The notes beneath the pieces are model-generated. The model was not told where the DNA came from, searched no databases, and saw only the letters and a list, made by a program, of their open reading frames with translations. Shown here piece by piece: positions 2,584 to 61,352 of a stretch of 64,000 nt of DNA (positions within the stretch are counted from its first letter, which is position 1; each line of letters begins with the position of its first letter). Both the position numbers and the translations under genes were made by a program. The DNA is from Planotetraspora kaengkrachanensis (GTDB taxonomy: Bacteria; Actinomycetota; Actinomycetes; Streptosporangiales; Streptosporangiaceae), in contig NZ_BONV01000048.1 of NCBI RefSeq assembly GCF_016862895.1, positions 1 to 64,000 on the forward strand, given 5' to 3'.

Positions 2584-4010
2584 GCCGCCTGGCCGTCGAC
2601 GATCTCTCGCAGGCTGACGAGCTGGTCGCGCACCCGGTCGGGGGCCGTGCCGCCGAACGCGCTGCGCGCGGCGAGGGCGCCCTGGACGTTGAGCACGTCA
2701 CGAACACCTGGCGTCCCGTCGGCCGAACCGGCGGGCTCCGCGGCGAAGTGCGGCGACACCTTGGCGAGCTCCTCGTCGGTGAGATCGCCGAGATCCTTGT
2801 CGTTGACCTGGCACCACACCACCAGGTGGCCGACCGCCTCGTGCGCGTCCCGGAAGGCGACGCCGCGCCGTACGAGCAGCTCGGCGAGGTCGGTCGCGAG
2901 CGCGAATCCCTCCGGGGCGCTGGCCGCGAGCTTGGCCGTGTTCACCCGCATCGTCGACACCATGCCCGACACCGCGGGGAGCACGAGGAGCAGGGTGTCG
3001 ACGGCGTCGAACACGGGCTCCTTGTCCTCCTGCAGGTCGCGGTTATAGGTGAGCGGCAGGCCCTTCAAGGTCGTGAGCAGCGACATCAGCGACCCGATCA
3101 GCCGGCCGCTCTTGCCTCTGGCCAGCTCCGCGACGTCCGGGTTCTTCTTCTGCGGCATGATCGACGAGCCGGTGGAGTAGGCGTCGTCCACCTCGATCCA
3201 CCTGAACTCCTGGGACGCCCACAGCACGATCTCCTCGCCGAGGCGCGAGAGGTGCACGCCGATCATGGCCGCGCAGAAGAGGAACTCGGCCGCGAAGTCG
3301 CGGTCGGCGACCGCGTCCATCGAGTTCGGCGCGGGGGCGTCGAAGCCGAGCTCGGCCGCGACCGCCGCGGGGTCGAGAGGCAGGGACGAGCCCGCCAGCG
3401 CGCCGGAGCCGAGGGGCGAAACGGCCGCCCGCCGGTCCCAGTCCCTCAGGCGGTCGACGTCCCGGGTCAGGGCGTGCACGTGGGCGAGCAACTGGTGGCC
3501 GAAGGACACCGGCTGCGCGTGCTGCAGGTGCGTCATGCCGGGCGCCGCGGTCGCCGCGTGCTCCTCGGCCTGGCTCATCAGCGCGGTCTCCAGCTCGACC
3601 AGCCGCGACACGATGGTCCGGACATGGTCGCGCAGGTAAAGCCGCAGGTCGGTGGCGACCTGGTCGTTGCGGCTGCGACCGGCGCGCAGCTTGCCGCCGA
3701 GCGAGCCGAGACGCTCGAGCAGCCCGCGCTCCAGAGCCGTGTGCACGTCCTCGTCGGCGACGGTCGGACGGAACTCGCCCCGCTTGCAGGCGCTCTCCAG
3801 CTCGTCGAGCGCACCGAGCATGCGCTCGAGCTCCTCCGCGGTCAGCAGCCCGGCACGGTTCAGGACGCGGGCGTGCGCGCGCGAGGCCAGCAGGTCGTAC
3901 GGCGCGAGCCGCCAGTCGAACTGCACACTCACCGACAGGCGCGTGAGCGCGTCCGCGGGTCCCCCCTCGAACCTGCCGCCCCAGAGCCGCATCGGCTTGT
4001 TGTCCGCCAC
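2565..4010 (-). CDS. argH: Argininosuccinate lyase
   Basis: Last step of arginine synthesis: splits argininosuccinate into arginine and fumarate. The 481-residue protein begins at LWGGRFEGG after a short leader and carries the fumarate-lyase signature [12 protein letters not shown] near residues 280-292, with the catalytic-histidine stretch [11 protein letters not shown]-like [13 protein letters not shown] near 160. I chose the GTG at 4010 because GAGGAGG (4023-4017) sits about 6 bases upstream; an ATG 14 codons earlier has no such site. argG is not in the window: argH is separated from argR by about 400 bp that hold a repeat array, so it probably has its own promoter. A possible -10 (TAAGGT) lies near 4195, and an ATGCC/GGCAT inverted repeat at about 4050-4068 could be a weak regulatory site. 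Confidence 0.96.
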
Positions 4011-4298: not shown

Positions 4299-4414
4299 GT
4301 GCATGATCACCGACCGGGAAGTTCCAGGTCAGCGGGCATTTTCACGAATCTGTGCATGATCACACCCATGGGGGGCGGGGCAGGCAGGGCGGGGCGGGGC
4401 GGCGCGGGGGGTGA

Positions 4415-4418
<4 letters not shown>
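4299..4418 (-). repeat. 53-bp repeat array A, downstream of argR
   Basis: Two exact cores of the dispersed family (GTGATCATGCAC on the minus strand) occupy 4352-4363 and 4299-4310, exactly 53 bp apart. The array reads away from argR. The argR stop itself is embedded in a core-like TGATCAC at 4417-4411, 55 bp before the first full core. The remainder of 4011-4298 holds only weak promoter-like signals for argH; I see no gene there. Confidence 0.85.
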
Positions 4419-22188: not shown

Positions 22189-22270
22189 CCGACCAGTCCC
22201 GCGTGACAAACAACCCCGCCTGACAAACAACCCCGCGTGACAAACAACCTCGCGTGACAAACAACCCCGC
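22186..22270 (+). repeat. 17-bp tandem repeat starting at the acylase stop codon
   Basis: Four copies of a 17-bp unit of the form GTGACAAACAACCCCGC start at 22203, 22220, 22237 and 22254, and the fifth position (22271) is the first 53-bp-family core. The stop codon of the preceding gene (TGA at 22186) is followed by a similar unit, 18 bp long. TGA is kept in every copy. Confidence 0.9.
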
Positions 22271-22622
22271 GTGATCATGCACACCCTCGGGGACGGCCGG
22301 TCTGACCGGCCCATCCCCTCAGCGTGATCATGCACAGATTCGGCGACAGCCGCCCTGAGCTGCCGTTTCCCCCGCCGTAATCATGCACACCTTCGGAAAA
22401 CCCTCCGCGAGCTGGCATGACATGCGTGGTGATCATGCAAATCCAACGGGTTTGCATGATCACCACGTGCAAAAGACCTGCACAGCGCATGCGTGGCCGA
22501 ATCTGCGCATGATCACGAAATGCATCGCGCCTGGTCAGCGGTCGTACGGGCGAATCCGTGCATGATCACAAACAAGGTCGGGGCAGGTCAACAGGCCTGC
22601 CACCGACCTTGTGCATGATCAC
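22271..22622. repeat. 53-bp repeat array B, mirror arranged
   Basis: Plus-oriented cores start at 22271, 22324, 22377 and 22429 (steps 53, 53, 52). Minus-oriented cores end at 22463, 22516, 22569 and 22622 (steps 53, 53, 53). The third plus core reads GTAATCATGCAC, so TGA is replaced by TAA. The left half points away from the acylase stop codon and the right half away from the pheT stop codon. Between cores, degenerate blocks TTCGGNGA and CCTGCCC recur. No gene is seen in this 507-bp region. Confidence 0.92.
22425..22467. repeat. central palindrome of array B
   Basis: A 43-bp near-perfect palindrome built from two head-to-head cores: arms of 20 bp (one T-G pair) around a 3-nt loop, with CGTGGTGATCATGCAAA as the outer part of the left arm. 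It marks where the plus and minus arrays meet. It has no T-tract, though it could still act as a two-way transcription stop for the convergent genes. Confidence 0.85.
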
Positions 22623-22698
22623 ACCCCGGGGTGAGTGTCACACCCCTGAGCGAGGATCACACCCTGGGGTGAGTGTCACACCCGGTGGGGGTGATTCA
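22623..22698 (-). repeat. 19-bp tandem repeats in register with the pheT stop codon
   Basis: On the minus strand, units beginning GTGA start at 22698 (off by one base: TGA at 22698-22696 is the pheT stop), 22679, 22660, 22641 and 22622, each 19 bp apart. Units resemble GTGACACTCACCCCNGGGT. The fifth position is the first 53-bp core of the minus array. Confidence 0.88.
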
Positions 22699-39447: not shown

Positions 39448-39747
39448 GTGATCATGCAGACCTTCGGGAAAAGCGGCTCCCACCTGCCCTTTCCCCGTTC
39501 GTGATCATGCACGCCTTCGGAGAAATGACCCCTCACCTGCGGCTTCGCCGTACGTGATCTGGCAATCAGCGTGTCGTTGCCAGATCACGTACGGCATCGC
39601 CGCAGGTCAGGGAGGAGATCCGCGAACCTGTGCATGATCACACCGAACGTCGGCCCATGTCAGCGGCCATGCTCACGAATCCGTGCATGATCACACCTGA
39701 CGTCGACGCACGTCAGCACACACATCCACGAGCCTGTGCACGATCAC
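39448..39747. repeat. 53-bp repeat array C, mirror arranged
   Basis: Plus-oriented cores start at 39448, 39501 and 39554; minus-oriented cores end at 39588, 39641, 39694 and 39747. All steps are exactly 53 bp. Variants: GTGATCATGCAG, GTGATCTGGCAA and GTGATCGTGCAC. The minus half points away from the aspS stop codon. The plus half has no gene ending before it: the neighbour to the left starts rather than ends there. Apart from the SOS-like site and this array, 39323-39800 contains nothing I recognise. Confidence 0.92.
39535..39607. repeat. central palindrome of array C
   Basis: A 19-bp perfect inverted repeat (39547-39565 with 39577-39595, loop 11) extends after a 3-bp mismatch by nine more pairs (39535-39543 with 39599-39607): 28 of 31 positions pair. 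It is built from two inverted 53-bp units. Confidence 0.9.
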
Positions 39748-39804
39748 ACCCCCAGGTGGGGGTCACACCCCCAGGTTGGGGTCACCCCCCCGGTGGGGGG
39801 TCAC
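39748..39804 (-). repeat. 19-bp tandem repeats in register with the aspS stop codon
   Basis: On the minus strand units of the form GTGACCCCNACCTGGGGGT begin at 39804, 39785 and 39766, 19 bp apart, and the next step (39747) is the first 53-bp core. The TGA of the first unit (39803-39801) is the aspS stop codon. Confidence 0.9.
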
Positions 39805-44648: not shown

Positions 44649-44708
44649 CGTAATACAACCAAGGGCATTTCGGGCCCTGGAGGGCTGATTCAAGTGCGGG
44701 AGGACGCG

Positions 44709-45938
44709 GTGACCACCGACCCGTGGGGCCGGGTAGACGCTGACGGCACCGTCTACGTGCGTACGGCTGAGGGAGAACGGGCCGTCGGGTCCTGGCAGGC
44801 GGGCGAGCCTGAAGAGGCCCTGGCCTACTACCGCCGAAAGTTCGACGAGCTGGCCGGGCAGGTCCAGCTCCTGGAGCAGCGGGTGAAGGGCACCGACCTG
44901 GCGCCCGCTCAGGCCGAGTCGAACATCGCGAAGCTGCGGGAGGCGGTCGCCGAGGCGCACGCCATCGGCGACCTCGCGTCCCTCCAGGACCGCCTCTCGG
45001 CGCTCACCGACATCGTCGGCAAGCGCCGGGAGGAGGTCAAGGCCGCCCGCGACCAGGCTCGCGTCCAGGCCCGGGAGACCAAGGAGCGGATCGTCGCCGA
45101 GGCCGAGCGCATCGCCGAGGACGCCACGCACTGGAAGTCCGGCGGCGAGCGGCTGCGGCAGCTCATCGACGAGTGGAAGGCCGCCGAGCGCATCGACCGG
45201 GCGACCGAGGCCACCCTGTGGAAGCGTCTGTCCACCGCTCGTACGGCTTTCGCGAAGCGTCGTAAGGCCTACTTCTCGTCCCTGGACGAGCAGCGCGACG
45301 CCATCCGGAGCTCCAAGGAGCGGATCGTCACGGAGGCCGAGGCCCTGGCGTCCTCGACCGACTGGAACGCGACGGCGGCGGCCTACCGCGAGCTCATGCG
45401 GCAGTGGAAGTCCGCGGGGCGCGCCTCCCGCGAGGCCGAGGACGAGCTGTGGGGCCGGTTCAAGGGCGCCCAGGACCAGTTCTTCCAGGCCAGGTCGGCG
45501 GTCTTCGCCGAGCGTGACGCGTCGTTCGCGGCCAATGCGGAGATCAAGGAGACCCTGCTGGTCGAGGCCGAGCGGCTCCTGCCCGTCACGGACTCCCGTG
45601 CGGCGCGCAGCGCGTTCAGGAGCCTGCTGGAGCGCTGGGAGGCCGCCGGACCGGTGCCCAGGGAGATGCGGGACAAGCTCGAGGGCGGCCTGCGCCGCGT
45701 CGAGGACGCCGTCCGCAAGGCCGAGGAGAACGAGTGGAAGCGCTCGAACCCCGAGGCCCGCGCCCGCGCCCAGGACACGGTCAACCAGCTCCGCCGCTCG
45801 ATCGAGCAGCTCGAGGCGCGCCTGTCGAAGGCGCGGGCCGGCGGCAGGGACAAGGACGTCAAGGAGGCCGAGGAGGCTCTGGCCGCCCGCCGTTCCTGGC
45901 TCGAGGAAGCCGAGCGCACCCTGGCCGAGTTCTCCTGA
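44709..45938 (+). CDS. DUF349 repeat protein
   Basis: 409-residue, highly charged, mostly helical cytoplasmic protein. After an N-terminal segment (about 1-60) and a coiled-coil region, three DUF349 repeats of about 75 residues can be seen, centred on LRQLIDEWKAAERIDRATE, YRELMRQWKSAGRASREAE and FRSLLERWEAAGPVPREMR. The C-terminus is another coiled coil. Function is not established; relatives bind nucleic acid or ribosomes in some reports. The GTG at 44709 has GGGAGG five bases upstream, in a context nearly identical to that of the cyclophilin start. A repeat array starts at its stop codon. Confidence 0.87.
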   Translation: MTTDPWGRVDADGTVYVRTAEGERAVGSWQAGEPEEALAYYRRKFDELAGQVQLLEQRVKGTDLAPAQAESNIAKLREAVAEAHAIGDLASLQDRLSALTDIVGKRREEVKAARDQARVQARETKERIVAEAERIAEDATHWKSGGERLRQLIDEWKAAERIDRATEATLWKRLSTARTAFAKRRKAYFSSLDEQRDAIRSSKERIVTEAEALASSTDWNATAAAYRELMRQWKSAGRASREAEDELWGRFKGAQDQFFQARSAVFAERDASFAANAEIKETLLVEAERLLPVTDSRAARSAFRSLLERWEAAGPVPREMRDKLEGGLRRVEDAVRKAEENEWKRSNPEARARAQDTVNQLRRSIEQLEARLSKARAGGRDKDVKEAEEALAARRSWLEEAERTLAEFS

Positions 45939-46176
45939 CGCTCCCCCCGCGCGTGATCATGCACAGGTTCGGAGAAGGTCTCGCCGACCTGCCCCGACCT
46001 TGGGCGTGATCATGCACGGGTTCGCGGAAAGAGCCGGCCACCTGCCCTCACCCCGTTCGTGATCATGCACACATTCGACGAAACCGCTGCCGAGCAGCGG
46101 TTTCGTCTTTTGTGATCATGCACGAATTCGCGGATCCCCCGCCTGAGTAGGCCGTACACGGTTCGTGATCATGCAC
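45936..46176 (+). repeat. 53-bp repeat array D, five exact cores
   Basis: GTGATCATGCAC occurs exactly at 45953, 46006, 46059, 46112 and 46165, each step 53 bp. The TGA stop of the DUF349 gene (45936) lies 18 bp before the first core TGA. Inter-core sequences share the degenerate blocks ATTCGNNGAA and ACCTGCCC but are otherwise different. All units read away from the DUF349 gene; the remaining 46177-46306 up to the xre gene shows nothing further. Confidence 0.95.
46077..46111 (+). terminator. intrinsic terminator inside repeat array D
   Basis: A perfect 14-bp stem (46077-46090 with 46094-46107), 3-nt loop and four T (46108-46111) fill the segment between the third and fourth cores. It would end transcription of the DUF349 gene about 170 bp after its stop codon. 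Confidence 0.8.
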
Positions 46177-46306: not shown

Positions 46307-47254
46307 TCAGGCTTGGTCCCGCACGGCGGCCGACCAGTCCCGGGAGGCGTCCGTGCCCCAGCTCGCCAGCAGGCGCAACGCATCCTCCGACGCGGAACCG
46401 GGCTCGGCATGGTAGATCGCCAGCGACTGCTCCTGATCGTCAGGGAGCGTGAAGGTCTCGTAGCGGAGTGCCATTTCACCCGCCAGCGGGTGCATCACTC
46501 GCATGCTGCCGTGCGTCTTCTTCTTGACGTCGTGGGCCGCCCACAGCGTCCGGAAATTCTCGCTCTTCATGGAGAGCTCCCCGATCAGCGCCGCGAGCAG
46601 CGGATCCTCCGTGTGCAGACCGGCGTCCAGCCTCAGATGGCCCACCACGTCGTAAGCCTTGGACTCCCAGTCGACGAAGAACCGCCGGGCCGCCGGGTCG
46701 AGGAAGGTGATCCTGGCCCAGTTCCGCTCCTGCGGGGCACGCGCCGCCCAGTCGCCGAATAGCGCGGAGGCCGTGCGGTTCCACGCCAGCACATCGGTGC
46801 GGCGGCCCCACACGTACGCGGGCACGCCCTCCATCGCCGTCAGCAGGTCCATCAGCGCGGGTCGCACCTGCTGACGCCGCAGCGCGTGCCGCTGCTTCGG
46901 CTTCGGCTTGGCGAGGTGCAGCAGATGGGCGCGTTCCGTCTCGGAGAGTTTGAGCGCACCGGAGATCGCGTCCAGCACCTCGATCGAGACGTTGTGGCCG
47001 TTGCCCTGCTCGAGACGGGTGTAGTACGCCACAGAGACCCCGGCGAGCTGCGCCAGCTCCTCCCGCCTCAGACCCGGCACCCGGCGCCGGCCGTACCCGG
47101 CCAGCCCCACGTCGGCCGGCTTCAGCCGGGCCCTGCGCGTGCGCAGGAACTCGCTCAGCTCCGTACGCGGGTCGAGGTGCCGCTCAGGGCCGGGTCCCGA
47201 GCCTGGGCCCGGCACGGCTGCCGGGTCGGTGCGCAGGTCGGGGTGGGTGGCCAT
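46307..47254 (-). CDS. XRE-family regulator with MmyB-like ligand domain
   Basis: 315-residue DNA-binding protein. A helix-turn-helix domain (LRREELAQLAGVSVAYYTRLEQG, residues about 60-82, with GRRRVPGLR just before) is followed by an MmyB-like PAS-related sensor domain (AYVWGRRTDVLAWNRTASALFG and TFLDPAARRFFVDWE). This class is typically next to a divergent oxidoreductase gene and represses it; some members bind fatty acids. Here it is divergent from a zinc alcohol dehydrogenase, its likely target. A Pro/Gly-rich N-terminal 30 residues may be overextended, as later starts exist. Confidence 0.87.
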   Translation of the reverse strand: MATHPDLRTDPAAVPGPGSGPGPERHLDPRTELSEFLRTRRARLKPADVGLAGYGRRRVPGLRREELAQLAGVSVAYYTRLEQGNGHNVSIEVLDAISGALKLSETERAHLLHLAKPKPKQRHALRRQQVRPALMDLLTAMEGVPAYVWGRRTDVLAWNRTASALFGDWAARAPQERNWARITFLDPAARRFFVDWESKAYDVVGHLRLDAGLHTEDPLLAALIGELSMKSENFRTLWAAHDVKKKTHGSMRVMHPLAGEMALRYETFTLPDDQEQSLAIYHAEPGSASEDALRLLASWGTDASRDWSAAVRDQA

Positions 47255-47290
47255 GCCCTCAGTATCGCGCCAGGTATCCGCCGGCGGGGC

Positions 47291-47311
47291 CCGGCAGCCT
47301 GACCCTGCCGG
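47291..47311. promoter_or_regulatory. inverted repeat in the xre/adh divergent region
   Basis: CCGGCAG (47291-47297) and CTGCCGG (47305-47311) are exact 7-bp arms around 7 bp, 37 bp upstream of the regulator. It is a reasonable operator for the divergent pair. No clear -35/-10 was found in 47255-47490. Confidence 0.4.
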
Positions 47312-47490
47312 TGGTAGTCACGCGGGACGTAGGCGAGGCGGTGGTCTGGGCAACGCCGTACGGCCGGAGCAGCCTGAATGCCGCCCCATGAAAACCGCCC
47401 GGGGCCGTTTCTCGGAGACCGACGGAGAGGGTGTCCTTCCGGCCGGAGTCCCCAACAACGATCAACAAGTAACAGAATCGAGGCCTGCTC

Positions 47491-48501
47491 ATGCTTACGG
47501 CCATTGCCACCGCGATCAATGAGCCGCTCACGTTCACCGAACGCGAGGTTCCCGAACCCGGCCAGGGCGAGGTCCTGGTCGAAATCACCGCGTGCGGGAT
47601 CTGCTACACGGACCTGGACCTGCTCCAGGGTCACTGGCCCATCGCCCGTTTCCCGGTCGTCCCCGGCCACGAGATCACCGGCGTGGTGGTCGCCACCGGT
47701 CCCGGCGTGTCGTGGCCGGAGGTCGGCGCTTCCGTGGGCGCCCAGTTCCTCGGCGACTCCTGCCGCCACTGCGACTACTGCGTGCGCGGCGAGCAGATCC
47801 TCTGTCCAGGCAAGCGCATCACGGGCATCGTCATTGACGGCGGCTACGCCGAATACGCGGTCCTCAAGGCCGACTTCGTGACCCCGCTGCCGGAGGGGCT
47901 CGATCCGGTCGCCGCGGCACCGCTCATGTGCGCGGGCGTGACCGCCTTCAACAGCCTTCGGCGGGGCGGGATCACCGCCGGCTCGCGCGTCGCGGTCATC
48001 GGCGCCGGCGGTGTCGGCGCGCTGGCGATCCGCTACGCCGTCGCCATGGGCGCCCGCGTGGCCGTCATCGGCCGGTCGAACCGGGCCGAGGCGGCGGTGA
48101 GGGAGATGGGCGCCGAGCGGTTCATCGCCGCCCGGGACTCCGACCCGGCCGAGGCCCTCAGAGCCTGGGACGGCGGTGCGAACCTGATCCTCAACGCCTC
48201 CCCGTCCACCTCGGCTGCCGCGGCGACGCTCACCGGCCTGGCGCCCGACGGCATGCTGGTGCTGTGCGGGTACGGCCCCGAGCCGCTGGTCCTGCCCACC
48301 CAGCCGATGGTCCTCAACCGGCTGCGCGTCATGATCAACCCGTCCGGCTCACCGCACGACACCCGCGACGCCCTCGCCTTTTCTGCGGCACACGACATCC
48401 TGCCCGAGTTCACCCCGGTCGGCCTGCGCGACGCCAACGCGGCGCTCGAGGCAATGGCCAAGGGCCAGGCCGGGCGGCGGTCGGTCATCACCTTCGACTG
48501 A
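47491..48501 (+). CDS. Zinc-dependent alcohol dehydrogenase
   Basis: 336-residue medium-chain dehydrogenase/reductase. Catalytic zinc ligands lie in ACGICYTDLD (Cys about 32) and PGHEITG (His-Glu about 63), the structural zinc in the four cysteines of CRHCDYCVRGEQILC, and the cofactor loop is VIGAGGVGALAIRYA. Basic residues after it (GRSNRAEA) suggest NADP. All ligands are intact, so it should be active on an alcohol or aldehyde; the substrate is unknown. The ATG follows GAGG at eight bases. It is divergent from an XRE/MmyB regulator that likely controls it. Confidence 0.88.
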   Translation: MLTAIATAINEPLTFTEREVPEPGQGEVLVEITACGICYTDLDLLQGHWPIARFPVVPGHEITGVVVATGPGVSWPEVGASVGAQFLGDSCRHCDYCVRGEQILCPGKRITGIVIDGGYAEYAVLKADFVTPLPEGLDPVAAAPLMCAGVTAFNSLRRGGITAGSRVAVIGAGGVGALAIRYAVAMGARVAVIGRSNRAEAAVREMGAERFIAARDSDPAEALRAWDGGANLILNASPSTSAAAATLTGLAPDGMLVLCGYGPEPLVLPTQPMVLNRLRVMINPSGSPHDTRDALAFSAAHDILPEFTPVGLRDANAALEAMAKGQAGRRSVITFD

Positions 48502-48532: not shown

Positions 48533-48716
48533 GTGCATGATCACGGACCAGATCAGGCCTGTTCAGGGATGTTCGGCGCGAATCCGTGCATGATCACGGG
48601 AGATGGAACCGCTGGTCATCCGTGGTTTCCCCGAAGATGTGCATGATCACCACACGGGTTGGGGCAGGCCGCGGGGCCATTCCGCGAGCCTGTGCATGAT
48701 CATCAATGGAGACTCA
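48533..48716 (-). repeat. 53-bp repeat array E, downstream of rel
   Basis: Minus-oriented cores end at 48703, 48650, 48597 and 48544, each exactly 53 bp apart; the first reads ATGATCATGCAC, the rest are exact. The rel stop codon (48716-48714) lies 14 bp before the first. The array fills the gap between the convergent alcohol dehydrogenase and rel genes. Confidence 0.93.
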
Positions 48717-51077
48717 ATTGGTGACGCGGTAGACGTCGTAGACGCCTTGGATCGTGCGTACGGCCTTGAGTACGTGGCCGAGGTGCTTGGGATCGCCCAT
48801 CTCGAAGGTGAACTTGCTGACGGCCACCCGGTCCCGGGAGGTCGCCACCGACGCCGACAGGATGTTCACGTGGTGGTCCGACAACGTCCGGGTGACGTCG
48901 GACAGCAGGCGGGGCCGGTCCAGGGCCTCCACCTGGATCGCGACCAGGAACAGCGAATCGTCCTGCGGCGACCACGACACCTGCACCAGGCGATCCGCCT
49001 GGGCACTCAACTGCTCCACGTTCGGACAATTCGTCCGATGTACCGAAACTCCATGCCCTCGCGTGACAAATCCGACGATGTCGTCGCCGGGTACCGGCAT
49101 GCAACATCGGGACAGCCGCACCCAGACGTCCGGATCGCCCGCGACCATGACGCCGGCGTTCGAATTGCCCCTGGGACGTCCCTTGAGCCTCGTGGGGACC
49201 GCAGCCTCCGCCAGGTCCTCCTCGGCCCCCTCGACCCCTCCGAGCGCCTGTACGAGCTTCTGAACGACGGACTGGGCCGCGACGTGGCCCTCACCCACGG
49301 CCGCGTACAGCGCCGACACGTCGGGGTAGCGCAGATCACGGGCGAGGGCGAGCAGTGCCTCGCCGGACATGAGGCGCTGGAGCGGCAGGCCCTGCTTGCG
49401 CATCGCCCGCCCGATGGCCTCCTTGCCGGCCTCGATCGCGGTCTCTCTGCGCTCCTTGGAGAACCACTGACGGATCTTGTTCCGAGCCCGGCCGCTCTTG
49501 ACGAACTTCAGCCAGTCGCGGGACGGCCCGGCGTCCGGCGACTTCGAGGTGAAGATCTCGACGGTGTCCCCGTTGCCGAGCCGGGACTCCAGCGGCACCA
49601 GCCGCCCGTTCACGCGGGCGCCGATGCAGCGGTGGCCGACCTCCGTGTGCACGGCGTACGCGAAGTCCACGGGCGTGGCGCCCTCGGGAAGGGCGATCAC
49701 CTGCCCCCGTGGTGTGAAGACGAACACCTCGGACACCGACAGGTCGAAGCGCAGCGACTCGAGGAACTCGCCCGGGTCGGAGGTCTCCTTCTGCCAGTCG
49801 AGCAGCTGCCGCAGCCAGGCCATGTCGTTGACCTGCTTGGCCTTGGCCGGCCCCGAGCCGTTCGTCTCCTCCTTGTACTTCCAGTGCGCGGCCACGCCGT
49901 ACTCGGCGCGGTTGTGCATCGCCCGCGTGCGGATCTGCAGCTCGATCGTCTTGCCTTCTGGCCCCATGACCGTCGTGTGCAACGACTGGTACATGTTGAA
50001 CTTGGGCATGGCGATGTAGTCCTTGAACCGCCCGGGCACGGGCCGCCACTGCGCGTGGATCGTGCCGAGTGCCGCGTAGCAGTCGCGGACGGTGTCGACG
50101 AGCACCCTGATGCCGACCAGGTCGTAGATGTCGTCGAACGCCACGTCCTTGGCGATCATCTTCTGGTAGATCGAGTAGTAGTGCTTCGGCCGCCCGCGCA
50201 CGGTCGCCTTGATCTTGGCTTCGCGCAGTTCCGCGGAGACCTTCTCGATGACCTCCTGCAGGAACAGGTCACGCCTCGGCGCCCGCTCCGACACCATCCG
50301 GGCGATCTCGTCGTACCGCTTCGGATAGAGCATGGCGAACGCGAGGTCCTCCAGCTCCCACTTGATGGTGTTCATGCCGAGCCGGTGAGCCAGCGGCGCG
50401 AAGATCTCGAGCGTCTCCCGCGACTTCTGCTGCCGCTTGTGCTCCGGCATGTACCGCATGGTGCGCATGTTGTGCAGCCGGTCGGCGAGCTTGATGACCA
50501 GGACCCGGATGTCGCGCGACATCGCGACGACCATCTTCCTGACGGTCTCGGCCTGCGCGGCGTCACCGAACTTGACCTTGTCCAGCTTGGTCACGCCGTC
50601 GACGAGCAGCGCGATGTTGTCGCCGAAGTCGGCTCGTAACTCGTCGAGGCCGTACGCGGTGTCCTCGACGGTGTCGTGCAGCAGGGCGGCGCACAGGGTC
50701 TCGTCGTCGGTCCCCAGCTCGGCCAGGATGCTCGCCACGGCCAGCGGGTGGGTGATGTACGGGTCGCCGCTCTTCCGCTTCTGGTCGCGGTGGTGGTAGG
50801 CGGCCATGTCGTAGGCACGCTCGATCAGGCGCAGGTCGGACTTGGGATGGGTCGCCCGGACCGTCTTGAACAGCGGCTCCAGCACCGGATTCATAGCACC
50901 CCATTGCCCCCCGAACCGGGTCAGCCGCCGTCGTACGGCAGGTGCCGGTCTCTCTTCAGCGCCCCCCGATGCGTCGGGCACCGCGTCAGCGGGCACGTCA
51001 GCCGGCTCGGGGGCGGTGCGCGGGTCGGTTCCGCGTCCAGCCCGCGCGCTGTCAGGCACGACCACATCACGGGGCAC
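48714..51077 (-). CDS. rel: Bifunctional (p)ppGpp synthetase/hydrolase
   Basis: RelA/SpoT homologue that makes and degrades the alarmone (p)ppGpp. The 787-residue protein has a 75-residue disordered N-terminal extension, an intact HD hydrolase domain ([23 protein letters not shown] and LLHDTVEDT split over residues 88-150), the synthetase domain with [20 protein letters not shown], a TGS domain, a zinc-finger-like region ([22 protein letters not shown]) and a C-terminal ACT domain. Both activities should be present. The GTG start has GAGGAG five bases upstream. A -10 candidate TACACT (51114-51109) would give a leader of about 25 nt. Confidence 0.95.
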
Positions 51078-61283: not shown

Positions 61284-61352
61284 GTGATCACGCGGCCCTG
61301 CGGTGATCATGCACGGGAGATCCGTGCATGATCACACCCAGGGTGCGTTCAC
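61284..61352. repeat. compact repeat cluster F between pdxS and marR
   Basis: Cores of the dispersed family: a variant GTGATCACGCGG at 61284, an exact plus core at 61303 (19 bp on) and an exact minus core ending at 61335. The last two form a perfect 14-bp stem with a 5-nt loop (61303-61316 with 61322-61335). The pdxS stop codon (61351-61349) lies 17 bp before the minus core. The hairpin could terminate pdxS transcription. Confidence 0.85.

What the first reader, a model, noticed from the sequence alone, without database searches (positions are those of the whole stretch)
45936..46176. Dispersed intergenic repeat with an exact 53-bp period and a GTGATCATGCAC core
Five identical 12-bp cores occur at 45953, 46006, 46059, 46112 and 46165. 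The same core and period recur in clusters near 4.3, 22.3-22.6, 39.4-39.7 and 48.5-48.7 kb, with a compact form at 61.3 kb: about 29 cores, 19 exact, all between genes. The inter-core sequence is not identical but keeps degenerate blocks (ATTCGNNGAA, ACCTGCCC). A fixed period with diverged filler means the spacing itself is conserved, as if 53 bp (about five helical turns) matters. I do not recognise a published family.
Basis: seen in the sequence. Interest (0 to 1): 0.85.

Follow-up and report, generated by a model that had tools for sequence, protein, structure and literature searches.

The report
Phased repeat arrays at gene ends
In soil bacteria of the genus Planotetraspora and some relatives, hundreds of copies of a short DNA word sit at an exact 53-base step next to the ends of genes, both word and step are kept by evolution while the letters between change freely, and each lineage uses its own spelling, which points to an undescribed DNA-binding system.

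Summary
The window (a Planotetraspora, Streptosporangiaceae) has 26 cores, 19 of them exact, in six intergenic arrays; its genome has 652 exact cores against 0 for the reversed word. Each unit is 53 bp: core, TTCG, then a degenerate copy of the core (CTGACCTGCGC) 31 bp on. Arms point inward from gene ends to a central apex, often a palindrome. Between two species, core sites are 94.5% identical but filler only 64.7%, like other intergenic DNA; 40 of 41 orthologous units keep 53 bp, whereas a third of 53-bp steps in ordinary intergenic DNA changed length. So core and spacing are both under selection. Other genera carry the architecture in other spellings ("dialects") and, in one genus, a 41-bp step; the relA 3' end carries cores in eight of eight compared genomes of five genera. 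GTGATCATGCA repeats with other suffixes and spacings occur in two other actinomycete families, once also after relA, but two of three loci read there lie between divergent genes. Searches found no general transposase, RNA family or publication. Best reading: a phased lattice of sites for an unidentified DNA-binding protein that marks boundaries between transcription units. The lattice is well supported; the boundary function is inferred.

The parts
45953..46176 (+). Reported array: five exact cores at 53-bp steps, one (+) arm, beginning 15 bp past the last base of the DUF349 gene
46077..46111 (+). Unit between cores 3 and 4 holds a 14-bp stem (GACGAAACCGCTG..CAGCGGTTTCGTC, 46077-46107) followed by TTTT: terminator-like
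48533..48703 (-). Four (-) cores at 53-bp steps, ending 11 bp before the last base of the RelA gene (- strand); in P. silvatica (G003) this arm lies beside the arm at 45953 (224-bp step)
22271..22622 (.). Two-arm array ++++---- between penicillin amidase and PheT genes; apex palindrome GTGATCATGCAA-N11-TTGCATGATCAC at 22429-22463
39448..39747 (.). Two-arm array after the 3' end of a class II (D, K, N type) aminoacyl-tRNA synthetase gene; degenerate apex pair GTGATCTGGCAA / TTGCCAGATCAC at 39554 and 39577 keeps the 53-bp period
4299..4363 (-). Two (-) cores 53 bp apart between the argR gene (ends at 4415) and the argH gene (starts at 4010), both on the - strand
61303..61335 (.). Compact form: core-N9-inverted core, after the 3' end of a SOR/SNZ (PdxS-type) gene; G003 and G004 have two-arm arrays at this place
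44694..45938 (+). DUF349 gene, upstream neighbour of the reported array
46307..48501 (.). Two genes (MmyB-like HTH regulator, -; zinc alcohol dehydrogenase, +) that lie between the two arms here; in G003 the DUF349 and RelA genes flank one joint array
48714..50894 (-). RelA/SpoT gene; its 3' end carries cores in eight of eight compared genomes of five genera

Best explanation
The arrays are lattices of binding sites for an unidentified sequence-specific DNA-binding protein. Each 53-bp unit holds a strong site (GTGATCATGCAC plus TTCG) and, about three helical turns on, a weak copy of it (CTGACCTGCGC); the next strong site follows about two turns later, so bound molecules would lie on one face of the helix and could bind cooperatively. 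Arms start soon after a stop codon and point inward to a central apex, so the complex occupies the gap between transcription units; I infer that it marks a boundary there (transcription roadblock or aid to termination, insulation of neighbours). Shown: selection on core and spacing, inward order of arms, avoidance of divergent gaps, retention of places between species, lineage-specific spellings. Inferred: that a protein binds, that it is cooperative, and the boundary function.
For: Core identity 94.5% (803 sites) against filler 64.7% (2304), other intergenic 65.5% (986) and third codon positions 80.9% (888) between two species. 40 of 41 orthologous units keep 53 bp; control 537 of 1633 steps changed. 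The weak site is the best of 360 placements of the core with one base left out along the unit (0.58 against mean 0.26, sd 0.08). No base-pair covariation in 548 distinct units; the strongest dependences are between neighbouring positions, and mirrored arms show no stem-like excess beyond the apex: DNA rather than RNA recognition. In the genus with the 41-bp step the second box is inverted, CAGGTC for GACCTG, as a DNA site allows. 69 arrays: 23 convergent, 42 tandem, 2 divergent, 2 unplaced, against 273, 1036 and 315 gaps (Fisher p 0.0001 for divergent); steps ++ 133, -- 142, +- 34, -+ 0; stop to first core median 16 nt in 68 cases, 45 of them within 0-40. At the relA gap the arrays of G003, G004, G062, G079 and G090 have no stem over 9 bp, where several array-free relatives have hairpins (by eye).
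Against: No binding protein was identified and nothing is measured. Single arms in tandem gaps are co-oriented with the genes in only 14 of 23. Strong stems are not excluded by arrays: at least 11 bp in 9 of 25 convergent gaps with arrays, 28% of 188 without, 21 of 45 length-matched without; at the relA gap G002 has a 12-bp and G212 a 25-bp stem, and the window's own + arm a 14-bp stem. Arrays serve a minority of gaps, and some lie inside likely operons (argR-argH in the window; a G212 array where G004 has a 10-bp gap), where termination would be harmful. Helical phasing is statistically weak, and relatives in other families use other spacings. Two of the three loci read outside the family lie between divergent genes (L363, L364), which does not fit a gene-end role. 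The 69 arrays include orthologous arrays of G000 and P. mira and are not independent.
Confidence: 0.42

Rival explanations
1. A selfish, mobile dispersed repeat (REPIN- or MITE-like) copied by an enzyme that reads the core; dialects arise because enzyme and repeat co-evolve.
For: Presence/absence between genera with clean empty sites; one P. mira array of 13 (60118) has no core at the mapped place in G000; hundreds of copies; patchy distribution (5 of 15 genomes of genus g30 positive, one with 2 pairs only); arms gain and lose whole 53-bp units.
Against: Places are kept: 12 of 12 mappable G000 arrays are shared with P. mira, and 5 shared against 0.65 expected between G004 and G062. Y1 transposase (the RAYT family) absent in 5 of 7 array genomes, own included. 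No fixed ends or target duplications seen in the six filled/empty comparisons printed (by eye). Selection on core and spacing inside old copies is not expected of decaying inserts.
Confidence: 0.2
2. A chromosome-architecture element like E. coli BIMEs: the arrays load gyrase or a nucleoid protein and relieve supercoiling behind or between transcription units.
For: Gene-end, partly convergent placement and clustering resemble BIMEs (resemblance recalled; literature seen only as listings with starts of abstracts).
Against: Strong sequence dialects are odd for a housekeeping topoisomerase; nothing here tests supercoiling.
Confidence: 0.18
3. A 3'-UTR RNA element: tandem RNA-protein sites or part of a terminator structure just after the stop codon.
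For: First core a median 16 nt after the stop; leader 56% C and 21% G against 37% and 34% after array-free stops, as in Rho-loading sites (recalled); apex palindromes, one with mirrored changes (GTGATCATGCAA / TTGCATGATCAC).
Against: No covariation in 548 units; outer arms show no stem-like pairing; 9 of 23 single arms in tandem gaps are antisense to the genes and 19 tandem gaps hold arms of both strands; second box inverted in the 41-bp genus.
Confidence: 0.12
4. Uptake or self-recognition sequences with dialects, as the DUS of Neisseriaceae.
For: Fixed anchor plus lineage-specific spelling and high copy number, as the DUS abstract describes (PMC3630211, abstract and outline seen).
Against: Exact 53-bp arrays, ordered arms and near-absence from genes (1 of 125; 17 of 318 for the looser word) have no evident purpose in uptake; competence was not examined.
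Confidence: 0.05
5. Target sites of an RNA-guided DNA-binding protein: GTGATC as protein-read motif, the suffix as guide match.
For: Invariant GTGATC with lineage-specific suffix (GTGATC itself was fixed by the searches).
Against: No copy of ATGCACAGGTTCG that is not preceded by C in G000, G001 or G003 (0 hits); suffix positions 13-15 vary within a genome.
Confidence: 0.03

Closest known systems
REP / REPIN sequences with RAYT transposases, and BIMEs
   Same: Short words in hundreds of copies between genes, in clusters, with inverted pairs forming hairpins (REPIN abstract, PMC3116915, abstract and outline seen).
   Different: Units here are direct repeats at an exact 53-bp step with diverged filler and an asymmetric 12-bp core; arms are ordered; places are kept between species; Y1 transposase absent in 5 of 7 genomes.
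DNA uptake sequences of Neisseriaceae and their dialects
   Same: Genome-wide word, fixed part plus lineage spelling ('dialects', PMC3630211 abstract).
   Different: No phased arrays or ordered arms are mentioned in that abstract; here cores avoid genes.
Arrays of operator sites that stop RNA polymerase (roadblocks, e.g. Sal-box/TTF-I arrays after rRNA genes; recalled)
   Same: Tandem sites after gene ends.
   Different: Not shown to bind anything; not strictly polar with respect to transcription (14 of 23).
CRISPR arrays
   Same: Short repeats at a fixed step with varied DNA between, n units and n+1 repeats.
   Different: 12-bp core, filler shares a consensus, many separate loci at gene ends.

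Membership tests
REPIN/RAYT | A Y1 (IS200/RAYT-type) transposase in the genome | tested here: not met
   PF01797 found in 2 of 7 array genomes (G004, G212), not in G000, G001, G062, G079, G090; rings in 5 of 14 control genomes
REPIN/RAYT | The repeat itself is a palindrome or an inverted doublet | tested here: inconclusive
   Apex palindromes and compact forms exist, but most cores are direct repeats (275 same-strand steps against 34 inverted)
DUS-type uptake sequence | High-copy word with lineage dialects | tested here: met
DUS-type uptake sequence | Needed for uptake of DNA by competence machinery | not testable with these tools
   no competence assay; receptor genes not searched
BIME (gyrase/IHF-bound; recalled) | Mosaic of REP palindromes bound by gyrase or IHF | not testable with these tools
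   binding cannot be tested; whether outer units hold REP-type palindromes was not searched for
Intrinsic terminator | GC-rich hairpin in each element | tested here: not met
   stems of 11 bp or more in 9 of 25 convergent array gaps; none over 9 bp in five of seven relA arrays, 12 and 25 bp in the other two
Structured RNA family (Rfam) | Match to a known family / covariation | tested here: not met
   Rfam 0 matches at gathering scores in the window; no covariation in 548 units
CRISPR | Long identical repeats with unrelated spacers | tested here: not met
   12-bp core, fillers share a consensus
CRISPR | cas genes beside the array | not tested
   14 window proteins, most of them flanking genes, were scanned against Pfam (8, 6): none matched a Cas family
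Helically phased operator array | Site spacings at whole helical turns | tested here: inconclusive
   244 of 275 steps at 51-54, 10 at 41-42, 6 at 30-31, 6 at 18-21; phase test p 0.007-0.01 near 10.5 bp, but 9.5 and 12 bp give 0.02 and 0.013

The most novel reading that the evidence does not exclude
An undescribed actinomycete boundary system: a conserved protein reads the anchor GTGATC(A/T)TG(C/T)A, while suffix and spacing drift together at hundreds of sites in each lineage, so that whole genomes change dialect in place (relA gap: eight genomes, five genera, several spellings). The same anchor in two other families (G373; G432 and G371, the last also at a relA 3' end, with 22-bp period) would make it old and widespread.
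Probability: 0.33. Interest if true: 0.9.

Novelty: new variant of a known kind. Interest (0 to 1): 0.78.

Why it matters
The spacing, not only the sequence, of a dispersed bacterial repeat is measurably under selection here, and hundreds of sites in a genome have changed spelling together at places of which some are inherited. If a protein is behind it, bacteria hold an unrecognised system that organises the ends of transcription units, and the dialects offer a natural series for reading how a protein and several hundred sites evolve together.

Tried and rejected
RAYT/IS200 transposase as the partner: rejected as a general partner. RNA hairpin in each unit: the consensus AGGTTCGG/CCGACCT could pair, but it does not covary and AGG is replaced in other dialects while GACCTG stays. 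Long-range pairing of the two arms: not seen beyond the apex; outer mirrored units are somewhat more alike than random ones over their whole length, as after duplication or conversion (102 two-arm arrays). Guide RNA: no free suffix copy. Known RNA family: none in the window. Plasmid or phage origin: no hit of the 45.9-kb array in plasmids, of the 22.3-kb array in phages, or of the G373 array in plasmids; 6 viral-contig stretches with GTGATCATGCA pairs had 42-50% G+C and look unrelated. Arrays replacing hairpin terminators everywhere: not supported, though no stem over 9 bp was found in five of seven relA arrays. A looser core (GTGATCNTGNA) added 15 genomes with one or two hits each to the 16 positives among 345. 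My early impression that single arms always follow the transcript was wrong (14 of 23). Long single-strand runs in the place listings look like an artefact of listing about 50 hits per strand (my inference). Literature: searches (2 papers, both listed; 1, listed; 15 of 45 listed; 6 of 18 listed; 25 of 31 listed) showed no paper that I recognised as describing this repeat; only listings and starts of abstracts were seen. PMC5839063 lists one S. coelicolor ArgR-type site that contains the core (passage seen).

Full report
What is there. The window holds six intergenic arrays of GTGATCATGCAC: 26 cores, 19 exact and 7 with one mismatch; 30 hits with up to two mismatches against 4.3 expected, the other 4 being isolated. 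Inside arms the step is 53 bp apart from one 52. The genome (8.77 Mb, 96 contigs) has 320 + 332 exact cores and the reversed word none. A four-core, 53-bp pattern over the genome-contig collection (84,980 species by its description) returned 73 stretches, all Planotetraspora. Contig lengths identify G001 as P. mira NBRC 15435, G003 as P. silvatica NBRC 100141 and G062 as Planotetraspora sp. A-T 1434; the window is a further genome of the same genus as G001 and G003, whose own record was not shown.

Anatomy. In 548 distinct units the strong positions are the core 1-12, R13, TTCG 16-19, YGACCWGS 33-40, WY 45-46 and C53 (the first ten core bases were fixed by the search). Sliding the core along the unit, allowing one base to be left out, finds one good place, positions 32-42, CTGACC-TGCGC, so the unit carries a second, weak copy 31 bp after the first and 22 bp before the next. 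Odd spacings of 18-21 and 30-31 (6 each of 275), at the gene-proximal ends in the G000 arrays that I read, fit that lattice. Arms are ordered: 133 ++ steps, 142 --, 34 +-, no -+. The last core of an arm mostly lacks TTCG (by eye; fits). The apex may be a palindrome of two cores 9-11 bp apart, a longer hairpin, or a few hundred bases. Leaders of up to 60 nt between stop codon and first core are 56% C and 21% G, against 37% and 34% after array-free stops.

Place. With my own codon-usage gene caller on nine data sets, 2.23 Mb of seven genomes, 69 arrays fall in 23 convergent, 42 tandem and 2 divergent gaps, 2 unplaced, against 273, 1036 and 315 gaps (Fisher p 0.0001 for divergent, 0.007 for convergent against tandem). 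These include orthologous arrays of G000 and P. mira. In the first three data sets 1 of 125 exact array cores lies in a called gene; for all hits of GTGATCWTGYA, in or out of arrays, 17 of 318 over the nine data sets. Single arms in tandem gaps are co-oriented in 14 of 23; at least one antisense case (G062 114828) is a two-arm array with a decayed arm.

Selection. All 12 G000 arrays in gaps that map to P. mira are shared (253 gaps, expected 0.56); of the 13 P. mira arrays on its first contig one, at 60118, has no core at the mapped place in G000. In pairwise alignments of 12 arrays, cores are 94.5% identical, filler 64.7%, other intergenic 65.5%, third codon positions 80.9%. Of 41 units whose two cores are cores in both species, 40 are 53 bp in both and one is 106; in 129 array-free gaps 537 of 1633 sampled 53-bp steps (overlapping, so not independent) changed length. 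The unit test is conditional on both cores being kept.

Dialects. The pair pattern GTGATC(A/T)TG(C/T)A with 25-50 bases between is present in 16 of 341 family genomes, six of 68 genera; reversed control 0 throughout. Consensus: G000 and P. mira GTGATCATGCACAGgTTCG; G004 GTGATCATGCAGAAGTTCG; G062 GTGATCATGCACaGgTTCCC; G079 GTGATCTTGcAGTtTgTCGC; G212 GTGATCTTGCAGtt.CTCGCA; G090 GTGATCTTGCAgGaaTTCCC with a 41-bp period and the second box inverted (8 units). G004, in the same genus, has 737 such pairs while only 165 of its cores end in CAC, in the loci read mostly the apex core. In genus g5 (G021, G022) the cores in the loci read are often back to back rather than face to face, so the arm order is not universal even in the family.

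Change in place. The gap between DUF349 and RelA holds an array, or cores in the same order, in eight of eight genomes compared (G000, G003, G002, G004, G062, G079, G090, G212; five genera), each in the spelling of its lineage. The seven besides G000 were picked as array carriers. In G000 two genes, an MmyB-like regulator and an alcohol dehydrogenase, now lie between the arms. In 30 genomes chosen from genera or species without array pairs relA was found in all 30; the DUF349 neighbour is recognisable by eye in about 18; several gaps hold ordinary hairpins and G075 (g30) a compact dialect hairpin. Other arrays differ between genera: of 119 orthologous non-divergent gaps, G004 has arrays in 7, G062 in 11, both in 5 (0.65 expected, none of 10,000 shuffles reached it); G004 and G212 (40 gaps, 4 and 2 arrays) and G062 and G212 (37 gaps, 2 and 1) share none. 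Empty sites are clean.

Beyond the family. Among 148 class genomes (137 outside the family), three outside it match: G373 (67 + 82 pairs, GTGATCATGCAATCCCGCCACCC, many at 37-38 bp), G432 (15 + 30) and G371 (13 + 4, with 22-bp steps). G371 and G432 are of one family, G373 of another. Of the three loci read, L365 (G371) has its array just after a RelA gene (73% identical to the window's over 447 residues); L363 (alcohol dehydrogenase / MobA-like) and L364 (arginase / ammonium transporter) lie between divergent genes, and L364 has an outward pair. So the anchor recurs but the architecture may not. Whether this is common descent, horizontal spread or convergence is open.

Mechanism. The lack of covariation, the inverted second box, the antisense arms and the lattice favour DNA recognition by a protein (my estimate 0.7). 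The position between stop codon and apex favours a boundary role (about 0.4 overall). The partner is unknown.

Verdict. The finding is real, under selection and, as far as the searches above reach, undescribed. It works like a phased operator array; it is not shown to be a member of the REPIN, BIME, DUS, CRISPR or terminator families.

Noticed in passing
window 46307-48501: Two genes (MmyB-like HTH, alcohol dehydrogenase) sit between the two arms of what is one array in G003; relatives of the first gene lie elsewhere in G003 and G004 (88-89% DNA identity).
   Followed up: partly
L246 2095-3405 and L247 2107-3901 (G000 contig C3): Single genes (GNAT acetyltransferase; M20 peptidase) also lie between inward-facing arms, so the apex may be a favoured landing place for genes.
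   Followed up: partly
L365 1501-1613: In another actinomycete family a 22-bp tandem array of GTGATCATGCACCTGCCCGGCG lies just after a relA gene, the same place as in Planotetraspora.
   Followed up: partly
window 22189-22270, 22623-22695 and 39748-39800: Short tandem repeats (period about 17, CCCGCGTGACAAACAA; and GGGTGTGACACTCACCCC-like) fill the stretch between gene end and first core in some arrays.
   Followed up: no
L190 and L200 (G022), L189 (G021): Genus g5 carries outward-facing core pairs (TGCATGATCAC-N18-GTGATCATGCA), the opposite order to Planotetraspora arms.
   Followed up: no
window 4299-4363: The argR-argH gap, normally inside an arginine operon, holds two cores 53 bp apart.
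   Followed up: no
L262 (G075), 3' end of relA: A g30 genome without array pairs keeps a single compact dialect hairpin, GTGACCTTGTAGAAC-CCCC-GTTCTGCAAGATCAC.
   Followed up: no
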